Positions 19,764-28,928 of a stretch of 46,951 nucleotides of DNA are shown piece after piece. The notes under the pieces were generated by a model. The model did not search any database. It was not told the origin of the DNA and saw only the letters and a program-made list of their open reading frames with translations. Each line of letters starts with the position of its first letter. Within the stretch, counting starts at the first letter, position 1. The position numbers and the translations under genes were made by a program. This DNA comes from an uncultured Saprospiraceae bacterium (lineage in GTDB: Bacteria; Bacteroidota; Bacteroidia; Chitinophagales; Saprospiraceae): NCBI GenBank assembly GCA_937922815.1, contig CALAJP010000136.1:1-46951 (forward strand). Reading direction: 5' to 3'.

Positions 19764-22544
19764 TTAAATATTTAAAATAAAATCGGTTAAAGAGTCTCCT
19801 TTCTCGAGATTTATTTTTTTTCTGAGTCGATATCTTTTAATTTCTACACTTTTAGGAGATATATTTAATAGAGATGCGATTTCCTTTGAGGTAAGATTAA
19901 GTCTCAAGTAGGCACAGACTTTTAAATCATTTGAAGTAAGTTGAGGAAATAGCGATTTTAGTTTTTTGAAAAATTCTTTATCTACATTTCTAAATGCTTT
20001 TTCAAATAATTCCCAATCATCATTACTCCCCAAATAGTCATCTATAGATTTCACCATGTCTTTTACATTATCTTTGGCATTAGCAGCTTTCCAGTCCGAA
20101 AGTTTATTTTTAATATCACTCAAGAAGTTGTTTCTTTTGAGTAATAACATCGTAGAAATTGCCAATTCTTTTTCTTTACTCTTTATATCCGCATTTAGTT
20201 TTTCGTTACGAATTTGAATTTTTAATTTCTCTTGTTGGAGTTTTTCGTAAGCTATCTTTTTATTGTTCTCCTCTATTAATTTCTGTTCTTTGAGTAAATA
20301 TTTGCGTTTGTTCGTTTTATAAATCCAATAAAGAATCGATAAAAATAAAATTAGGTAACACAAAATAGCTAAGGCAGATTTATAGAACGGTGTTGCAATA
20401 CTAAAAGCAATCTGTTTCTTTGTTTCAGGTTCATTTTTTATTGTACTCGAATAATGAAAAATATAATCTCCAGGAGCGAGATTTTCGAAAACAATTTGAT
20501 GATCTTTACCTAAATTTTGCCAACCTTCATGATAACCTTCTAATTGGTATTGGATGTGATGATTTAATAAAAAATTGTAGTTAGGTGTTTTAAATTCAAA
20601 TTGTATTTTTCGAAAAGAGTCATAAGAGAAATTTTCATTATCAATCAATTTCTGTTTTTTCTCTCCATCTATGGAGTACCCTGTACAAAAAACAGTAGTA
20701 TTAACCTCGTGCTCAAATTTATCTAAATCGACAATAGTATATCCATGAACATTTCCAATTAAGTATTTTTCAGCCTCCAAATGAAGAATATTTTCGTATC
20801 CATTCATCCATTCCCAACCCAATTCGATAGATTCTACCAATGGTGTTTCATTAAATGAATTTTTTATTAGTCTATTGATTTTTTTATCGGTAAAACTCCA
20901 TAGCGATTGGTTCGCTTCTATTAAGCGAAACGAACTTGATTGGGTTTTGAAAAGCTGATTCTTTTTTTCGCTCATTACAAAAGAGTCCACTTGAGGTTTA
21001 TATTCATATACTTTTTGATTATTGGCATACAAAACCGTATTATCAAACACAATTAGCGACGAATGTATACCCGTTTCTATCATTGGTGAAGTGTATCTTT
21101 TTTGATGAAGAACATTTCTGAATTTATCGTCTAACTTCAATTTAAAAACACCTAATTGTTCGTTAGAAACCCATATATTATCTTCAAAAAAAGAAATAAA
21201 TTTACTCGAAATATCAAAGCCCTTAACCTTATGGCTATACTTCCAACCCGAACTCCCTTTTTCTAAAATATGGAGACCTTGATAGTTCCCTTGGAGAATC
21301 AGGTTTGGGCTTAACGGAACGAAATCCCATGTTCCTAGTTCTCCTGATATTTTGTTTAGTTTTCCATTAGAATAGATATATGTTCCTGTATCATGTCCAC
21401 AAAATAATAGTCCATCTATTTGTTTCAAAGACCATACTTGACCTTTACTATTTTTTATCAGCTCAAACTCATCGTTACTTTTGTATTTTTTCTTGAACAA
21501 CCCTTGGTTCGTACCTAAGTATAAGTCATTTTCATAAACAATAGAAGAATAAACAGTTCCCAAAACACCATGAATATTTCGATATACTTTTATCGGCGAA
21601 TTTAAATTAATGAGATTGATTCCATAATCAGAACCTACCCATAAATTCTCAAATTTATCCTCATAAATAGAAAGAACAGTATTATTGCTCAGTCCATTAA
21701 ATTTATTAAATTGGGTAATAACTTCTCCTTTGAGGCTCATCAGAATTAACCCATCTGAAATCGTTCCTAATGCAATTCGATTATTGGAAAGAGCTTGAAC
21801 GCAATAAATACCATCAAAAATTGATGCAAATCGAATATTTCTCCATTCTTTGAGTTGGTTAGCTTCAACCTCAAAAATCCCTTTGTTTCTTGAAAATAAG
21901 ACTATATTGTTCTCAATTTCTAAGATTTCACTTACCAAAAAAGAAACATTTTCGCTAAAAGAAGACTTAGTAAACGACCTGTTTTCGTATTTCCAAATCG
22001 AATAATCCTCTAATTGAACAAATACGAACCCATTTACTAAAAAACTCTTTAAGATAGAACTTTCAGGTTTTGCAAATACAATTTTATTTTCATTAATATT
22101 ATAAATATAAATTCCTTTGGAAGATGTAAAAACAATCAAACCTCCAACTTGATGTATATTCCAAAACTGTTCGTTTATGTCTATCTCATTTTCGAGCAGG
22201 GTGTTTAACGATTGATAGCCTGTCAATTCATTATCTTCTTGTTTCCAAAAACCAAGTTCTCCTTGACCACCAACAAAAACTTTTTTATCGTAGCATAATA
22301 CGGAACGAATAATAGACTGAGTGGGTGCTTCGTTGCGGTTCCAACTACTTCCATTGTATGAAATTAGTCCGCCGTTATTGGCAAAATAGATAAAGTTATT
22401 TTCATCTTCACTAATTGCCCAATTTTGATTTTCGCCCCTATACTCGTTCGGCAAGAAGGAATGAATAGGTAAGTTTTCAGTGTATTGGCTGTACGCATAT
22501 TGATACGCAAAGAAAATAAGAATGGTTATGAACGAATATTTCAA
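19764..22544 (-). CDS. Membrane-anchored regulator: beta-propeller sensor, Y_Y_Y domain and LuxR-type HTH
   Basis: 926 residues. After a signal sequence (1-19, ending YAYSQ) come repeats of the two-component-propeller type (for example GLSNNTVLSIYEDKFENLWVG), forming periplasmic beta-propellers up to about 640. A Y_Y_Y-like domain (about 655-715, YQLEGYHEGWQNLGKDH) and one membrane helix (about 722-742) follow. Then come a cytoplasmic coiled coil (about 743-800) and a C-terminal LuxR/GerE-like HTH (about 865-926: LTSNDLKVCAYLRLNLTSKE, then IASLLNISPKSVEIKRYRLR). There is no histidine kinase or receiver domain, so this is a one-component, membrane-bound DNA-binding sensor, like many PUL-associated regulators of Bacteroidota. 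Its neighbours suggest control of bglX (downstream), the iron operon (upstream, 55 bases) or both. Confidence 0.9.
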   Translation of the reverse strand: MKYSFITILIFFAYQYAYSQYTENLPIHSFLPNEYRGENQNWAISEDENNFIYFANNGGLISYNGSSWNRNEAPTQSIIRSVLCYDKKVFVGGQGELGFWKQEDNELTGYQSLNTLLENEIDINEQFWNIHQVGGLIVFTSSKGIYIYNINENKIVFAKPESSILKSFLVNGFVFVQLEDYSIWKYENRSFTKSSFSENVSFLVSEILEIENNIVLFSRNKGIFEVEANQLKEWRNIRFASIFDGIYCVQALSNNRIALGTISDGLILMSLKGEVITQFNKFNGLSNNTVLSIYEDKFENLWVGSDYGINLINLNSPIKVYRNIHGVLGTVYSSIVYENDLYLGTNQGLFKKKYKSNDEFELIKNSKGQVWSLKQIDGLLFCGHDTGTYIYSNGKLNKISGELGTWDFVPLSPNLILQGNYQGLHILEKGSSGWKYSHKVKGFDISSKFISFFEDNIWVSNEQLGVFKLKLDDKFRNVLHQKRYTSPMIETGIHSSLIVFDNTVLYANNQKVYEYKPQVDSFVMSEKKNQLFKTQSSSFRLIEANQSLWSFTDKKINRLIKNSFNETPLVESIELGWEWMNGYENILHLEAEKYLIGNVHGYTIVDLDKFEHEVNTTVFCTGYSIDGEKKQKLIDNENFSYDSFRKIQFEFKTPNYNFLLNHHIQYQLEGYHEGWQNLGKDHQIVFENLAPGDYIFHYSSTIKNEPETKKQIAFSIATPFYKSALAILCYLILFLSILYWIYKTNKRKYLLKEQKLIEENNKKIAYEKLQQEKLKIQIRNEKLNADIKSKEKELAISTMLLLKRNNFLSDIKNKLSDWKAANAKDNVKDMVKSIDDYLGSNDDWELFEKAFRNVDKEFFKKLKSLFPQLTSNDLKVCAYLRLNLTSKEIASLLNISPKSVEIKRYRLRKKINLEKGDSLTDFILNI

Positions 22545-22599: not shown

Positions 22600-25026
22600 C
22601 TATTTTTTCTTTGCGAGCCATTCGTATCGAAATCCCACATAAAAAGAACGAGCATCCGCAGGAATGATTCCTGGGCCAGGGTAAGCCGTTGCTCTACGTG
22701 TAAAATAACTTTCATTGGTTAAATTATTTACGCCCCCAAATAGTCGAAATGCTTTCCAAGTGTAACTAAGCGATAAATCATGTACCGTAAAGGCAGGAAT
22801 AATTCCTCGGGTCGCATCTGCTACTTGAATAGCATTTGTTGCATCGGTAAACTGATCTCCTGTATGCGAAATTTGATAACTAAATTTAAAATTGTCAATA
22901 GCTGCTTTAGCTCCTACTTTTATCGTTTGAGAAGGAATTAACTCTACTTTTTTACCCAATACACTACTGCTTCCTGAAGTATATTCTCCATCAATAATAC
23001 TCAAATTCGCAAAGGGTGTAAATTTGATATTAGGGTATTTTTCTTTCCAAAGGGAATGAATATCCGCCTCTAAATAAGATTCGACACCTAATATTCTTGC
23101 ATTACCTATATTGGTACGATAAGCAACAGCTTTTTCAATTACGGCAGGGTCTGGAACGATAATTTCAGTCAATCCAATTCTATCATTATATTTTAACAAA
23201 AATATGCTAGCATCAAAACGGAACATTTCCAAAGCATCCCCTCTTATTCCTAGATCCAGATTAAAACCACTTTCGTCATTTAACAACGTATCTACTAATA
23301 AATTGGGGTTTGCTACTGCCAAGTCCGTAAAATTAATAGAGCGGTAGTTCTGTGATGCATTGGTATATATTTCAATCGTTGGATTTATTTTATAACTGAT
23401 TCCTAGACCTCCCAATACGATGGAACGGTTACTCGATTTACTATCTTCTATTCTTTGATCTAACAGAACTTCAGTCCCCGAAATGACACGGTTTTTGAAA
23501 TATCCATCTGAATTGGTGCTAATGAATTCGTAACGAACACCCGGTGTAATAATCAATTTATCTTTGAAATTGAATAAATGTTCAATGAAAAAAGAGCGAT
23601 TTTCCGAAGGGAATTCATACGAAAAACGTTCCAAATCGCGAGGGTTATTAAATGTAAAATCAGCATCATCGCCATCACTCGCCAACCCTTGTTTGCTTTC
23701 TGAAAAACCTCTATAATATCTTATTCCCGCCAAAAGGACTGTTTTTGTATTGCCTAACTGATATCGATGAATAAAACGAGTTTCGTTCCCCCAGTTCAAA
23801 TAAGTTCCTTCTAACAAATCTCTTTCTCTCAAGGGGTCGGGTCTGTTGATAGGCCCCAACTCTCCCAACGAAGAACGTTCTGCATCTAAAACAAAAAACT
23901 TAGTTTGAATTTTCGTTTTATTAGAAAAAGAATACGAGGCATTTAATGATGCTAAATTCCAAATTACTTTAAACCAATTTCTCGCTCTTTTTGATTGAGT
24001 AGGATCTTGGTTAAATTCGAAATCAACTAAACCACCTGGCTGTTTAGCCAAATAATCCATATGTGTGAAATCAATTCCAATTTTTAGTTTTTCGGTAGCT
24101 TGATGTTCTAATCGTGCGTAGGCTGTATTCTGAAAAAAGTTAGTATTAGGTCGCCAGCCATCAGCTTGTTTTCGTTGATAAAAAGCATAGTAATTTATTT
24201 TTTTTGTTGCCCCTCCTACTGAATTGAATGAATTTACCAATCCAAATGAACCTACGGTATTTTCAGTCAAAACATGGAGCGGAGTATTCGTATTTCCTTT
24301 TTTTAATTCAAAATCTAATAAACCGCCAAATTGGGGTCCATATTGCAATGATGCTGCTCCTCTTACAATTTTTATTCTTTTGATTGCCGCAGCAGGAGGT
24401 GTATAATACGATTCTGGATAGCCTAATGCATCGGCACTGATGTCATAGCCATTTTGACGAGTATTAAAGTTAGACGTACGGTTTGGGTCCAATCCTCTAG
24501 CTCCGATACTGAGTTGGAGTCCTCCTCCGTCGTTTTCTTGAATATTTAGCCCAGCTATCGAATTATATAATTGTCTTGCATTATTAGTTGCAGTATTAAC
24601 TATCAATTTTGAAACATCAATTACTTCGCTTTTTTTACCTGCATATATTGCGGTTCCTTCTATATTGTTTAATTTTCGATAAGTAACATCTTCATTGGTT
24701 TGTTCTACTTCGATTTCAGTCAGATTAATAGACAACAATTCTAAATTAAATTCATATTTATTTTTCGCTGGATATAGCGTTTCGTTTTGTGTTTCGTAGC
24801 CGTCTTTTAATAAAATTATATCTAAAGAATCTTTAATAAAAATACTAAATTCTAATATGCCTTTTTTATTAGTTACTCCTATTTCATTCCCATCAAAACT
24901 ATAGATTTCAACTTTTGGAATAGCTTTGTTTTTATCATCAATAATAGCAATTGATATTTCATTCTGAGCTAATAAATTGGCTGCAAAAAGAATAAAAAAT
25001 ATAAATCCTAAAAGTAATTTTCTCAT
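22600..25026 (-). CDS. FecA-like TonB-dependent outer-membrane receptor
   Basis: 808 residues. A signal peptide (1-21, ending LLAQ) is followed by a carboxypeptidase-regulatory-like domain (about 22-95). The plug domain (about 125-240) contains LYNSIAGLNIQENDGGGLQLSIGARG and IKRIKIVRGAASLQYGPQFGG, close to Fe(III)-dicitrate receptors such as FecA. The rest is a 22-strand beta-barrel ending FYVGFRYEW, then a short basic AKKK tail. It stops 55 bases before the regulator gene and starts 6 bases after the carboxylase-like gene, so it is co-transcribed with DUF4856, imelysin and the HTTM protein. That context supports iron or another metal chelate as the substrate. Confidence 0.93.
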   Translation of the reverse strand: MRKLLLGFIFFILFAANLLAQNEISIAIIDDKNKAIPKVEIYSFDGNEIGVTNKKGILEFSIFIKDSLDIILLKDGYETQNETLYPAKNKYEFNLELLSINLTEIEVEQTNEDVTYRKLNNIEGTAIYAGKKSEVIDVSKLIVNTATNNARQLYNSIAGLNIQENDGGGLQLSIGARGLDPNRTSNFNTRQNGYDISADALGYPESYYTPPAAAIKRIKIVRGAASLQYGPQFGGLLDFELKKGNTNTPLHVLTENTVGSFGLVNSFNSVGGATKKINYYAFYQRKQADGWRPNTNFFQNTAYARLEHQATEKLKIGIDFTHMDYLAKQPGGLVDFEFNQDPTQSKRARNWFKVIWNLASLNASYSFSNKTKIQTKFFVLDAERSSLGELGPINRPDPLRERDLLEGTYLNWGNETRFIHRYQLGNTKTVLLAGIRYYRGFSESKQGLASDGDDADFTFNNPRDLERFSYEFPSENRSFFIEHLFNFKDKLIITPGVRYEFISTNSDGYFKNRVISGTEVLLDQRIEDSKSSNRSIVLGGLGISYKINPTIEIYTNASQNYRSINFTDLAVANPNLLVDTLLNDESGFNLDLGIRGDALEMFRFDASIFLLKYNDRIGLTEIIVPDPAVIEKAVAYRTNIGNARILGVESYLEADIHSLWKEKYPNIKFTPFANLSIIDGEYTSGSSSVLGKKVELIPSQTIKVGAKAAIDNFKFSYQISHTGDQFTDATNAIQVADATRGIIPAFTVHDLSLSYTWKAFRLFGGVNNLTNESYFTRRATAYPGPGIIPADARSFYVGFRYEWLAKKK

Positions 25027-25032
25027 ATCAAT

Positions 25033-26364
25033 TTAATAATTTTGAATAGGGAGCACCCATTTCTTAGGCAAAAAATCATCATTTATGCTATTCAAATCTA
25101 CAGCTACATCAATAAAACGTTCGCTGACTCGTCCGTTCAACGCTACATGCGATTCTACATAAACTTTTGCATTTCTAAAGCCATGTTTATTTTCGTATTC
25201 TTTGGTGATTATTTTGGCAAATTGGAGTATAAAATCAGGTTGAATAGACATTTGTTTTTCTTGAAATTCAGTCAAAAAACTCTGATTTAAAATTTCTTGT
25301 TGGCGATTACTCTCACCATCTTTGATGATAAACCTTGCATAGCCAATTTTTTCGACTAACATCACCCTCCACGAGAAACGATAGCCTTCTTCTGCCCATA
25401 ACACATTCGAAGAATATAGAAAATGCCTAAGTGGCACAAAGAAATGAAAAACTATGAAAAGAGTAAATAGTAAAACGCCTATTTTTGGTAAAAAAACGGT
25501 TTTCTTTTTTTCTTGCTGGATAATAAGAGTCGTTTTTTTGAATAGAAAGCCATAATCCTTTTCATTAAAAAAGATAAGCGTCGACATAATCATAATAATA
25601 GGGAACATTCCAATATTAAACAACATGCCTGTCAAAGTATGAAAAACGATAACCATCAGATAAGCAAACCATTTTGTTCTTCTAAAACATAACAAAAATC
25701 CAATGCTTAAATCATATAAACATCCAAACCAACTAAAAATATAGGCAACAATAGGAAATTGGAAAAAGTATCCCAGTACGGGAATAGAAGTACGTTCGGG
25801 TAGCCAGATTTTGAGGGGCATTGCGTTTAACAACCAATCTGAATTGACTTTGGCTAAACCCGCATAAAAATAGACAACTACCAATAAAACCTTTATCGTC
25901 CAAATATATCCGTTAGAAACCAAAGAAGCAGATTCTATTTTTCGCCATTTTATATCTAAACTCCAAAAACGATGGGCTGGTAAAAAAATTAATATTAACG
26001 CCAACCAAGCTACCAAATAATAATGATTCAAATAGTTGGTCGCATCCATTAGTTCAATATAACTAAAAGTACAGAAAAATAGTATCGCAAAAAAACGGTA
26101 AAATAGTCCAGCACTAATTCCCAAAGCAGAAATAGCAGCAATTAAAAAGAGTAAATATACGCCCATTTCGTTGGGTACTTTTACCCATTCAAAACCATAG
26201 AATTTAAAAAAATGAGTCGGTACGATGTATAATTTTTCTACCCAGCCTTCTGCGTACATTCTCACTAGCCCAACAAACATCATTAGGCCATATAATATAC
26301 GAAAAATAGCCAGTGGCAAAATAGACACTGGCTTTTGAAGCTCTTGATAGATTGTATTTATCAT
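25033..26364 (-). CDS. Vitamin K-dependent gamma-glutamyl carboxylase homologue (HTTM protein)
   Basis: 443 residues with several membrane helices up to about 310 and a soluble C-terminal part. The similarity to gamma-glutamyl carboxylase covers the whole length. ATNYLNHYYL (108-117) has H114 where the human enzyme has His160. YFYAGLAKVNSDWL (165-178) has K172 at the position of catalytic Lys218. FHTLTGMLFNIGMF (241-254) matches the next conserved segment. In the C-terminal part, YRFSWRVML (328-336), ILQFAKII (379-386), VALNGRVSERFIDVAVDL (407-424) and KKWVLP (434-439) follow the same order as the vertebrate protein. The enzyme adds CO2 to protein Glu, powered by quinol epoxidation; the bacterial quinone would be menaquinone. 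Whether this homologue is active is unknown. It lies 3 bases after the imelysin gene and 6 before the receptor gene. Confidence 0.88.
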   Translation of the reverse strand: MINTIYQELQKPVSILPLAIFRILYGLMMFVGLVRMYAEGWVEKLYIVPTHFFKFYGFEWVKVPNEMGVYLLFLIAAISALGISAGLFYRFFAILFFCTFSYIELMDATNYLNHYYLVAWLALILIFLPAHRFWSLDIKWRKIESASLVSNGYIWTIKVLLVVVYFYAGLAKVNSDWLLNAMPLKIWLPERTSIPVLGYFFQFPIVAYIFSWFGCLYDLSIGFLLCFRRTKWFAYLMVIVFHTLTGMLFNIGMFPIIMIMSTLIFFNEKDYGFLFKKTTLIIQQEKKKTVFLPKIGVLLFTLFIVFHFFVPLRHFLYSSNVLWAEEGYRFSWRVMLVEKIGYARFIIKDGESNRQQEILNQSFLTEFQEKQMSIQPDFILQFAKIITKEYENKHGFRNAKVYVESHVALNGRVSERFIDVAVDLNSINDDFLPKKWVLPIQNY

Positions 26365-26367
26365 ATT

Positions 26368-27483
26368 CTAATCTGAATCACTAGGATTGTCCACATAAGT
26401 TATTGCGATACATAAAACCGATGGCATATCAGTTTTTAAGTTTACTAGATTTTTCACCGTTTCATTATATGCTGCCACTACAACAGATGAATTTTCTTTT
26501 ATTTGATTGGCAATATCATTATCCAAATTATTAATTGCAGCAATAGCCGTAGCATAGCCTTCTTGAATTTCTAAAGTAAGTGGTTGTCCGTTTTTTGTCT
26601 TAGCACTTGTGGTTACTAAATCATCTAGGCCTTCGTTAAAGAACGCTAAACTAGATTCAATAGATGTGCTCAATAATTCTTTAGAAATTCCTGCATGGAA
26701 GCCTTCCAACCTATCAGGGTACGTAAAGCCAAGTGTTAAAACGCCTGAAGGAATACCCAATTTTTCCCTTTTAATCAGTTCATAGTTTTTATTGATACTA
26801 TTCACTAATTGGCTAAATGAGGACCCTGCTCCATTACCCGTGTTATTTTTAAAATCGGTATCATACCCATTTACGAACCAAGCCTGATGCGTGGCTTGTA
26901 CTTTGTTTTGAATATCTTCGATAACAGCACTCAAATAAGCACTAGCATTATCATTCTCTAATGCAATAAGTGTTTCAGCAGTTGTTTTTTCGAATAATAA
27001 TTTATCCAAAACAGCAAAACCTAAATCATAATCATTTGGGTTCGTAATATCAATATTTCCAGTGTTCAATTGGTCGTTATAAGCGACAGTATCTAATGGA
27101 AAATTATTAATAGAAACCAAAAAAGAAGTTTCCGCAGGACCAAAATCGTGATGAGCCGCCTTTTGGTAACTCAACCAAAGTGCTGTAACCGCAGTCTTTA
27201 ATGCAGTTAAGTTTTCCTCGTTTTTATCAGTTATAAATGAAGTATGTGTAGTTACTAATTGTGTTGATTTTGCCTCTAAATCTGCATAGTTCGGTTTGAT
27301 TACATTATCCGCATAATTGGTCAAAACATCAGGCAAAATCGCAGAAAAATCGCAATCGTCTACCACTTCCCCACCCCCTGCATCGGGAGTATTTGTATTA
27401 TTCGTATCATCACTACCACAAGAAATTAGGGTTGCTAAAAACAAAAAACTAAAAATTCTATTAAAATAATTCATATTCATCAA
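26368..27483 (-). CDS. Imelysin-family (M75/EfeM-type) lipoprotein
   Basis: 371 residues. The signal peptide ends in a lipobox (LISC, C22), so it is lipid-anchored in the periplasm or at the surface; an Asp/Asn/Gly-rich linker follows. The helical imelysin fold is indicated by LWLSYQKAAHHDFGPAETSF (102-121) and the second repeat around EGFHAGISKELLSTSIESSL. The family's GxHxxE motif is replaced by GFAVLD (155-160), a form with Ala and Asp that many Bacteroidota members may share. Imelysin proteins are iron-regulated and linked to iron uptake; protease activity is doubtful. It lies 75 bases after the DUF4856 gene and 3 bases before the carboxylase-like gene. Confidence 0.9.
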   Translation of the reverse strand: MMNMNYFNRIFSFLFLATLISCGSDDTNNTNTPDAGGGEVVDDCDFSAILPDVLTNYADNVIKPNYADLEAKSTQLVTTHTSFITDKNEENLTALKTAVTALWLSYQKAAHHDFGPAETSFLVSINNFPLDTVAYNDQLNTGNIDITNPNDYDLGFAVLDKLLFEKTTAETLIALENDNASAYLSAVIEDIQNKVQATHQAWFVNGYDTDFKNNTGNGAGSSFSQLVNSINKNYELIKREKLGIPSGVLTLGFTYPDRLEGFHAGISKELLSTSIESSLAFFNEGLDDLVTTSAKTKNGQPLTLEIQEGYATAIAAINNLDNDIANQIKENSSVVVAAYNETVKNLVNLKTDMPSVLCIAITYVDNPSDSD

Positions 27484-27558
27484 ACATTTATAATCCTCAA
27501 AAAGAGTAGTCGGAACAATCCAACTACTCTATATAACTTAACATTTTAGATATATCTA

Positions 27559-28809
27559 CTATAAATCATCTTTACTATCTTCTAAGTTGAAGTAGTCAGC
27601 TAATTTATCTTTGGCTTCATTAATGTTCTCTGCAGTAGTGTTATAAAGATTCATGTTTCTAAAATCACTAGAACCTGCAAAAATCGTTAACAACTCGTTA
27701 ACTTGTTCATTTGTAATTGATTTCTTTTCATTAAATTGTAATGCATAAACAAATGCAATCGCTTCAGAAAGGTTATGACTTTTCAAACTAGGGTCATCAA
27801 TATTATTCAATCCACCATTCAAATAATGAATCGCTGTTGCTGCTGAGACTAACTCCCATTGCTTGCGAGCTTCTGCTCTTGCTTCATCTCTTGCTGTTAA
27901 GTTTTTAGCACTTATTGCTGCTCTTCCTTTTAGCATTTGATTCATAATATTTTGATTGGTTCCAACAACCCCATTAACAACATTTGAATAATTGCCCCAG
28001 AAAAATAATCCATCGGTATTAGTAGGAAAATCAATAGGTACTCCTAAATAGCCAAATGCTTCGTCCCAGTGGTGTTCCATAGCTGTTCCTTCTCCTTCTT
28101 CAACTGTTTCATTATCAACATTCATTCTGTCATCCCCCATATATACCGTAGTACCTTGGTAGTAGAAGCAAGCTCCCATCAATCCTTTTTCTATTAATTG
28201 AGCATATTCAACTCCCGTAGTACCTAATAAATATTGTTTAGAGTCATCAGTTGTACTTACTACCACTCCAGCAATACCGTCAGTACCTGCCACTGTTGAT
28301 TGACTTGCATTAGCAATTGCCCCCATTAAGTACTCAAAATCTTCTCTTACCGCTTCGAAAGTTTTTGATTTTAATTGTTTAGAATCATCATACGTACCTG
28401 CGAATCCTGCACCTTCTGCATTGCTAAACATAGCCGATAATTTGGTAGAATCTAATATGGTATTTGGTGTATTTCCTGTCCTTATATATGATTTAATTTC
28501 ATTCAACATTCCCAATCTTTGGATCTGCCCAGCATAACTTACGTTCTCAAAGCTATACGTCGAAGGAATGTCTAATGAATCTTTATGCATAGTATCGTCT
28601 ACATCTGTGTTATCCGTTACATACCCTTCTTTTTTGTCTTCAGGACAAACGGTTTCACTTGCGTCTGGATTTCCTAGTCCATCACTATCAGCATCTGCAT
28701 AGTAAGTAACTTTGGTGCAATCTACTGGTGTTGTCCCTTCATCGTCATTATCACAAGCTACAAAAGCAAGTGCCGTTAAGCATAAAAATAGTTTGGTAGT
28801 TTTTAGCAT
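27559..28809 (-). CDS. DUF4856 lipoprotein with an acidic, MopE-like metal-binding motif
   Basis: 416 residues. The lipobox is AFVAC (C19). Residues about 33-70 form an acidic module (YYADADSDGLGNPDASETVC and then CPEDK, DNTDVDD), like the Asp-rich metal-binding or thrombospondin-3-like repeats found in many Bacteroidota surface proteins, with cysteines at about 31, 53 and nearby. The DUF4856 domain (about 82-416) begins YSFENVSYAGQIQRLGMLNE and is mostly helical. Its function is unknown; the family usually co-occurs with imelysin. As the first gene of the four-gene operon it directly follows the promoter at 28857-28888. It may capture metal or hold the receptor complex together, which is inference from context. 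Confidence 0.88.
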   Translation of the reverse strand: MLKTTKLFLCLTALAFVACDNDDEGTTPVDCTKVTYYADADSDGLGNPDASETVCPEDKKEGYVTDNTDVDDTMHKDSLDIPSTYSFENVSYAGQIQRLGMLNEIKSYIRTGNTPNTILDSTKLSAMFSNAEGAGFAGTYDDSKQLKSKTFEAVREDFEYLMGAIANASQSTVAGTDGIAGVVVSTTDDSKQYLLGTTGVEYAQLIEKGLMGACFYYQGTTVYMGDDRMNVDNETVEEGEGTAMEHHWDEAFGYLGVPIDFPTNTDGLFFWGNYSNVVNGVVGTNQNIMNQMLKGRAAISAKNLTARDEARAEARKQWELVSAATAIHYLNGGLNNIDDPSLKSHNLSEAIAFVYALQFNEKKSITNEQVNELLTIFAGSSDFRNMNLYNTTAENINEAKDKLADYFNLEDSKDDL

Positions 28810-28856
28810 TTTTAATCTTTATTTAGATTTATTAAAAATAGTTTTGTTTTGTGGTG

Positions 28857-28888
28857 CAAAAATAACAATTCTATATTTAATAATCCAA
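28857..28888 (-). promoter_or_regulatory. Promoter of the DUF4856-imelysin-carboxylase-receptor operon
   Basis: On the minus strand TTG (28888-28886), 21 bases and TATTTTTG (28864-28857) match the Bacteroidota -33/-7 pattern. The -7 box ends 47 bases before the DUF4856 ATG. Confidence 0.6.
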
Positions 28889-28910: not shown

Positions 28911-28928
28911 ATACCTAAAATTAGGTAT
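28911..28928. promoter_or_regulatory. 18-bp palindrome, candidate operator
   Basis: ATACCTAA and TTAGGTAT flank AA in a perfect dyad. An outer pair ATACCG (28888-28893) and CGGTAT (28930-28935) is nested around it. The centre lies about 70 bases upstream of the predicted start of the iron-type operon, a usual position for an activator, though a repressor of the divergent gene is also possible. The regulator is not identifiable from here. Confidence 0.5.

What the first reader, a model, noticed from the sequence alone, without database searches (positions are those of the whole stretch)
22600..28809. Operon joining a full-length gamma-glutamyl carboxylase homologue to two metal-linked lipoproteins and a FecA-like receptor
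Seen: four minus-strand genes (DUF4856 lipoprotein, imelysin lipoprotein, HTTM/VKGC-like protein, TonB receptor) with gaps of 75, 3 and 6 bases, preceded by one promoter. The VKGC-like protein matches the vertebrate enzyme in segment order, with H114 and K172 at the positions of human His160 and Lys218, and a matching C-terminal part. Known: the carboxylase makes Gla residues that bind metal; imelysin is linked to iron uptake. Inferred: the two exported lipoproteins could be its substrates, which would make a menaquinone-dependent, Gla-based metal-capture system. Bacterial VKGC homologues are often annotated only as HTTM proteins, so the link may be overlooked.
Basis: partly seen in the sequence, partly recalled or inferred. 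Interest (0 to 1): 0.85.

Follow-up and report, generated by a model that had tools for sequence, protein, structure and literature searches.

The report
Iron operon with vitamin K carboxylase
Across the phylum Bacteroidota, a set of iron-regulated outer-membrane uptake genes usually carries a bacterial relative of the vitamin K enzyme behind blood clotting, with its catalytic residues intact; what it modifies is unknown, and no glutamate in its three neighbour proteins changes consistently when the enzyme gene is lost.

Summary
Four minus-strand genes (DUF4856 lipoprotein, imelysin lipoprotein, HTTM/VKGC enzyme, TonB receptor) lie at 22600-28809 with gaps of 75, 3 and 6 bases. The same order recurs across Bacteroidota: in nearly all 41 loci fetched by the enzyme alone, and the enzyme sits next to the imelysin in 46 of 49 genomes of a second sample. 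A Fur-box-like site lies upstream of 45 of 57 operons. In Riemerella the same operon is reported in the Fur regulon (PMC5609570). The enzyme keeps the human carboxylase's catalytic lysine, histidine and naphthoquinone pocket, invariant in 65 relatives, but matches only human residues 51-504 of 758. The imelysin belongs to the IPPA/PA4372 family, not the canonical GxHxxE family.
Twelve genomes keep the imelysin, mostly in a DUF4856-imelysin-TonB operon, but lack the carboxylase there; the receptor tree needs at least four changes. The near-invariant Glu of both lipoproteins stay. Proteobacterial relatives keep most of them without the enzyme in the operon.
Best reading: a Fur-controlled FecA-type uptake operon with an accessory, apparently intact menaquinone-dependent carboxylase of unidentified substrate.

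The parts
27559..28809 (-). DUF4856 lipoprotein (416 aa); Cys19 lipobox, conserved MEHxWDE and HxLSE motifs
   Evidence: AlphaFold2 mean pLDDT 88.6, helical, no clear known fold
26368..27483 (-). Imelysin lipoprotein of the IPPA/PA4372 type (371 aa); GxHxxE motif lost (A157, D160), invariant E235 and C-terminal D-S-D
   Evidence: model best hit 3pf0
26371..26379 (-). C-terminal Asp369-Ser370-Asp371, the D-[GS]-D-COOH tail of the IPPA family; predicted disordered
   Evidence: 66 of 66 linked imelysins, 0 of 11 canonical; also in proteobacterial relatives; pLDDT under 50 (69)
25033..26364 (-). HTTM/VKGC enzyme (443 aa), gamma-glutamyl carboxylase homologue: membrane domain plus first part of the lumenal domain
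26023..26025 (-). Codon of His114 (human His160)
25849..25851 (-). Codon of Lys172 (human Lys218, the catalytic base)
   Evidence: role from PMC12589487
22600..25026 (-). TonB-dependent receptor (808 aa), nearest solved structure E. coli FecA
28821..28839 (-). Fur-box-like site ATTTTTAATAAATCTAAAT (4 mismatches to the Riemerella consensus)
   Evidence: about 0.016 such sites expected per upstream region
28857..28888 (-). Putative Bacteroidota promoter: TTG (28888-28886), 21 bases, TATTTTTG (28864-28857)
   Evidence: read directly from the sequence
28911..28928 (.). Perfect palindrome ATACCTAA-TT-TTAGGTAT upstream of the promoter; the ACCTAAnnTTAGGT core is found upstream of four related operons

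Best explanation
This is a Fur-controlled outer-membrane iron (or iron-chelate) uptake operon: a FecA-like TonB receptor with two lipoproteins, DUF4856 and an IPPA-type imelysin, that are probably surface exposed. The HTTM/VKGC protein is an accessory enzyme of that pathway. It sits in the inner membrane with its active site towards the periplasm, uses reduced menaquinone, O2 and CO2 as human GGCX does, and carboxylates a carboxylate-bearing substrate in the pathway, most likely a protein in transit such as the imelysin. Shown here: operon, conservation, Fur-box-like sites, intact active-site residues, and that this enzyme clade occurs only with the imelysin but not the reverse. Inferred: orientation, activity, and that the substrate belongs to the operon. 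Not shown: the substrate.
For: Gene order DUF4856-imelysin-VKGC-TonB in nearly all 41 independent loci and in a 148-genome sample. In a second sample of 197 genomes this VKGC clade (50 genes, 49 genomes) always occurs in a genome with an IPPA-type imelysin, directly next to it in 46; in the three others the two genes are on different contigs, in two of these with the imelysin at a contig end. The linked VKGCs form one clade (98% SH-aLRT) apart from stand-alone paralogues. Equivalents of K218, H160, N159, H287, F286, F294, F299, I296, G297, D263, W223 and M402 are invariant in 65 linked proteins. Fur-box-like sites: 45 of 57 upstream regions with at most 4 mismatches against 0.9 expected. The homologous Riemerella operon is derepressed in a fur mutant (PMC5609570). 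A FecA homologue and four associated imelysin lipoproteins are abundant in Tenacibaculum vesicles (PMC10288586). The genome has two MqnA/MqnD-family proteins, i.e. futalosine-route menaquinone genes, and a haem-copper oxidase.
Against: The enzyme is dispensable: operons without it exist in several families, and no near-invariant Glu of the lipoproteins is lost with it. No candidate Glu is specific to VKGC-linked imelysins. The part beyond human residue 504, which includes some of the human propeptide-binding domain, is missing, and K217 is Ala (40). No intact VKOR. From memory, the Leptospira homologue showed epoxidation but no detected protein carboxylation.
Confidence: 0.45

Rival explanations
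1. One reading: the carboxylase makes Gla on the two exported lipoproteins, and Gla captures metal.
For: Tight gene linkage; the carboxylate-binding residues N159, H160 and Y395 of human GGCX are kept in the window protein; E235 and E260 of the imelysin and E349 of DUF4856 are almost invariant.
Against: Those Glu are equally invariant where VKGC is absent in Bacteroidota, and E235 and E260 are mostly kept in proteobacterial IPPA proteins. DUF4856 also occurs without VKGC and keeps E250 and E349.
Confidence: 0.2
2. The enzyme acts on a small carboxylate ligand (citrate-like or peptide siderophore) taken up by the FecA-like receptor, not on a protein.
For: FecA is the nearest solved receptor. 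Three receptor positions (N149, N182, G290) differ in most operons without VKGC. The substrate pocket differs from stand-alone paralogues at N158 to L, M401 to V and Y395. The human propeptide-binding part is incomplete.
Against: No biosynthetic genes in the operon; GGCX is known only for protein substrates; the receptor differences may be phylogenetic, since the VKGC-less rows fall into a few clades.
Confidence: 0.15
3. The enzyme is a menaquinol epoxidase or redox module (O2 scavenging, iron reduction) without carboxylation.
For: The quinone pocket and catalytic Lys are among the strictest residues. Some related operons carry a di-haem oxidoreductase next to IPPA imelysin and VKGC. Leptospira VKGC behaves so, from memory.
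Against: The carboxylate-binding N159, H160 and Y/F395 are also kept.
Confidence: 0.12
4. Coincidental hitch-hiking: VKGC is an unrelated gene kept in the operon by chance.
For: It is lost repeatedly without visible change in the partners' conserved Glu (100, 103).
Against: One clade, conserved place, co-occurrence of this clade with IPPA imelysin in 49 of 49 genomes, including a genome of the first sample where the two lie far apart (L107 and L176).
Confidence: 0.08

Closest known systems
Human gamma-glutamyl carboxylase GGCX (PDB 9bvk, 9l20, 9wfn)
   Same: HTTM membrane domain, first part of the lumenal domain, K218/H160/N159/Y395, naphthoquinone pocket
   Different: Lacks human residues 505-758, the C99-C450 disulfide and K217; N158 is Leu, M401 is Val; no known substrate
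IPPA/PA4372 imelysin-like family (Psyc_1802, PDB 3pf0; Xu et al. 2011, PMC3143127)
   Same: Fold, loss of the motif His, Fur-linked operons, C-terminal DGD, shared Glu
   Different: Proteobacterial operons carry a canonical imelysin, a di-haem oxidoreductase and DUF1513, not VKGC or DUF4856
Riemerella anatipestifer RAYM_09779-09794 (PMC5609570)
   Same: TonB receptor, 'vitamin K-dependent gamma-carboxylase', imelysin and hypothetical gene in a row, derepressed without Fur
   Different: Only a table entry in the passages read; no function proposed for the carboxylase; sequences not compared here
E. coli FecA
   Same: Best solved match of the receptor, E 6e-15
   Different: Scores 86 bits against a FecA equivalog cut-off of 1100; ligand unknown
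Leptospira VKGC (Rishavy et al. 2005, from memory) and LruB operon (PMC13066512)
   Same: A bacterial VKGC; an imelysin-DHOR-imelysin operon induced by iron limitation
   Different: Not in one operon as far as read; sequences not compared here

Membership tests
HTTM/VKGC family (PF05090 + PF22777) | Both domains above the curated cut-off | tested here: met
   239.9 and 167.5 bits against 27.7
HTTM/VKGC family (PF05090 + PF22777) | Catalytic Lys (K218) and H160/N159 | tested here: met
   K172, H114, N113; 65 of 65 linked relatives
Vertebrate-type GGCX | C-terminal part of the propeptide-binding domain and arch (human 505-758) | tested here: not met
   Profile match ends at human 504
Vertebrate-type GGCX | C99-C450 disulfide and K217 | tested here: not met
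   Phe, Ile and Ala at these places
Vertebrate-type GGCX | Glu carboxylation and vitamin K epoxidation | not testable with these tools
   Needs an enzyme assay
Vertebrate vitamin K cycle | VKOR in the genome | tested here: not met
   Only a sub-threshold fragment with stops in the own genome; few VKGC genomes have VKOR
IPPA/PA4372 imelysin family | Motif His replaced; best fold match 3pf0; C-terminal D-[GS]-D as in 3pf0 | tested here: met
   A157; Foldseek E 1e-7; DSD end
Canonical imelysin (ICMP/IrpA) | GxHxxE motif | tested here: not met
   G155-x-A157-x-x-D160
FecA equivalog | NCBIfam NF041676 cut-off 1100 bits | tested here: not met
   86 bits
Fur regulon | Fur box upstream | tested here: met
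   45 of 57 related upstream regions at most 4 mismatches, 0.9 expected; the window site has 4
Fur regulon | Fur binding and derepression in this organism | not testable with these tools
   Derepression reported only for the Riemerella homologue (PMC5609570)

The most novel reading that the evidence does not exclude
A working bacterial vitamin K (menaquinone)-dependent carboxylation pathway that equips a surface iron-uptake complex with Gla or beta-carboxy-Asp residues, the first function for bacterial VKGC proteins.
Probability: 0.22. Interest if true: 0.9.

Novelty: new variant of a known kind. Interest (0 to 1): 0.6.

Why it matters
What bacterial relatives of the clotting-factor carboxylase do is, as far as I could find, open. 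This work ties one clade of them to one partner set and one condition, iron limitation, and names cultivable strains and natural VKGC-less sister operons for comparison, so the question becomes directly testable.

Tried and rejected
The C-terminal D-[GS]-D tail first looked VKGC-specific (66 of 66 against 0 of 11), which suggested a docking tag or beta-carboxy-Asp substrate. Rejected as VKGC-specific: the tail is in Psyc_1802 and Rhodobacterales relatives without VKGC in the operon and in VKGC-less Bacteroidota. A VKOR-based vitamin K cycle: no correlation. VKGC loss explained by anaerobiosis: VKGC-less genomes have haem-copper oxidases like the rest. DUF4856 as an imelysin-like fold: weak only (Z 4.6), inconclusive. 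menD and menA were not found in the genome, but futalosine-route MqnA/MqnD homologues were. A first receptor tree put all VKGC-less operons in one group; with their VKGC-bearing relatives added it needs 5 changes.

Full report
Observation. Pfam gives DUF4856, imelysin, HTTM plus VKGC_lumenal_dom, and TonB plug and barrel. A Bacteroidota-type promoter can be read at 28888-28857. No RNA family or tRNA lies in the window.

The enzyme. Against the PDB the protein matches human GGCX at E 1.4e-33; a profile of relatives matches at E 2e-75, but only over human 51-504 of 758. 'Full-length' is therefore too strong. On an alignment of 65 operon-linked relatives, the equivalents of K218, H160, N159, H287, F286, F294, F299, I296, G297, W223, D263 and M402 are invariant, and Y395 is Tyr or Phe. 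According to the human structures (PMC12589487), K218 deprotonates the hydroquinone, N159/H160/Y395 hold the Glu, and the phenylalanines line the quinone pocket. K217 is Ala and the C99-C450 disulfide is absent. Compared with ten unlinked proteins (mostly stand-alone paralogues, several in a RibF-VKGC-SerS setting), the linked clade is set apart by L112 (human N158; 65 of 65 against 3 of 10), V334 (M401; 65 of 65 against 1 of 10) and Tyr/Phe at 395 (His in 9 of 10 unlinked). A tree makes the linked enzymes one clade with 98% support. This suggests a particular substrate, but that is inference.

The operon is conserved. Forty-one loci found by the enzyme alone nearly all show DUF4856-imelysin-VKGC-TonB in this order on one strand. 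In 148 phylum-wide genomes, 22 of 24 DUF4856 genes lie near VKGC, and by my count of the coordinates 31 of 43 imelysin matches do (30 directly, one split over two contigs). In a second sample of 197 genomes, partly overlapping the first and counted by hand from the tables, 46 of 49 genomes with this VKGC clade have it adjacent to an IPPA-type imelysin, and all 49 have such an imelysin. Intermediate operons in Cytophagales combine canonical imelysin, di-haem oxidoreductase, IPPA imelysin and VKGC (L174, L042; L036 in another order). In one genome the IPPA imelysin sits with the oxidoreductase and the linked-clade VKGC is elsewhere (L176, L107).

Iron. The consensus ATTTAGAATTATTCTAAAT, published for Riemerella Fur, occurs with at most 4 mismatches upstream of 45 of 57 operons against 0.9 expected from base-shuffled sequence. 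In Riemerella the corresponding four genes are derepressed in a fur mutant (PMC5609570). The receptor's nearest solved structure is FecA. Tenacibaculum vesicles are rich in a FecA homologue and four associated imelysin lipoproteins (PMC10288586). Bizionia argentinensis carries the operon (L029); whether its iron-responsive receptor and imelysin-like gene (PMC9478572) are these was not established.

The imelysin. It belongs to the IPPA/PA4372 family of Xu et al. (PMC3143127): GxHxxE has become GxAxxD, and the model's best structural match is 3pf0. All 66 linked proteins, which fall into 35 representatives under 50% identical to one another, end in D-[GS]-D, against 0 of 11 canonical imelysins and 0 of 1205 other ORFs in the loci. 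The tail is predicted disordered. It is a family trait, not a VKGC trait: Psyc_1802 and Rhodobacterales relatives have it.

Test of the Gla idea. Twelve genomes hold an IPPA imelysin, mostly in a DUF4856-imelysin-TonB operon, without VKGC at the site. Ten of the twelve have no HTTM protein anywhere; the other two have only HTTM genes at other places. One operon (L192) keeps a 55-residue frame with a weak match to VKGC (29 bits). With VKGC-bearing relatives added, the receptor tree needs 5 changes, at least 4 forced by starred branches. In these operons imelysin E235 and E260 and DUF4856 E349 are all retained, as are all strongly conserved receptor Glu except E552 (7 of 10). Sister pairs show no consistent loss of a widely conserved Glu; scattered losses at less conserved places occur. 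Three of four proteobacterial IPPA proteins examined carry the E235 and three the E260 equivalent.

Cofactors. Menaquinone: MqnA/MqnD-family genes are present, menD and menA were not found. VKOR: no intact gene. Oxygen: a haem-copper oxidase is present, as in the VKGC-less genomes.

Verdict. A real, widespread, iron-linked operon with an accessory vitamin K carboxylase homologue whose active site looks competent. Its substrate is unknown. The operon in Riemerella has been seen in a regulon table, so parts are known; a role for the enzyme in iron uptake was not found proposed in the library searched.

Limits.

Noticed in passing
28911-28928: Perfect palindrome ATACCTAA-TT-TTAGGTAT above the promoter; its core ACCTAAnnTTAGGT is also upstream of L038, L019, L006 and L008. 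Possibly a second regulator's site.
   Followed up: partly
L116 (own genome C14), L098, L099, L100, L113, L114, L115: A second, stand-alone VKGC clade, in several genomes between RibF and SerS, with His at the Y395 place and mostly Asn kept at N158; no obvious partner.
   Followed up: partly
26371-26379 and relatives: Invariant C-terminal D-[GS]-D on a disordered tail in IPPA imelysins of Bacteroidota and Proteobacteria; no function known.
   Followed up: partly
L118:4967-11679: DUF4856 and TonB receptor without VKGC or IPPA imelysin, followed by a 477-aa protein with no Pfam match and a flavin amine oxidase; L110 also has VKGC next to an amine oxidase.
   Followed up: no
L036, L042, L174: Di-haem oxidoreductase (PF06537) genes inside VKGC operons; a class of enzyme that in other systems modifies metal-binding proteins (from memory).
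   Followed up: partly
19764-22544: Reg_prop/Y_Y_Y/LuxR-type regulator starting 55 bases after the receptor gene on the same strand; not found in the related operons, so probably not part of the system.
   Followed up: partly
own genome (G000): menD and menA models find nothing although controls ring widely, while two MqnA/MqnD-family proteins are present: futalosine-type menaquinone synthesis.
   Followed up: partly
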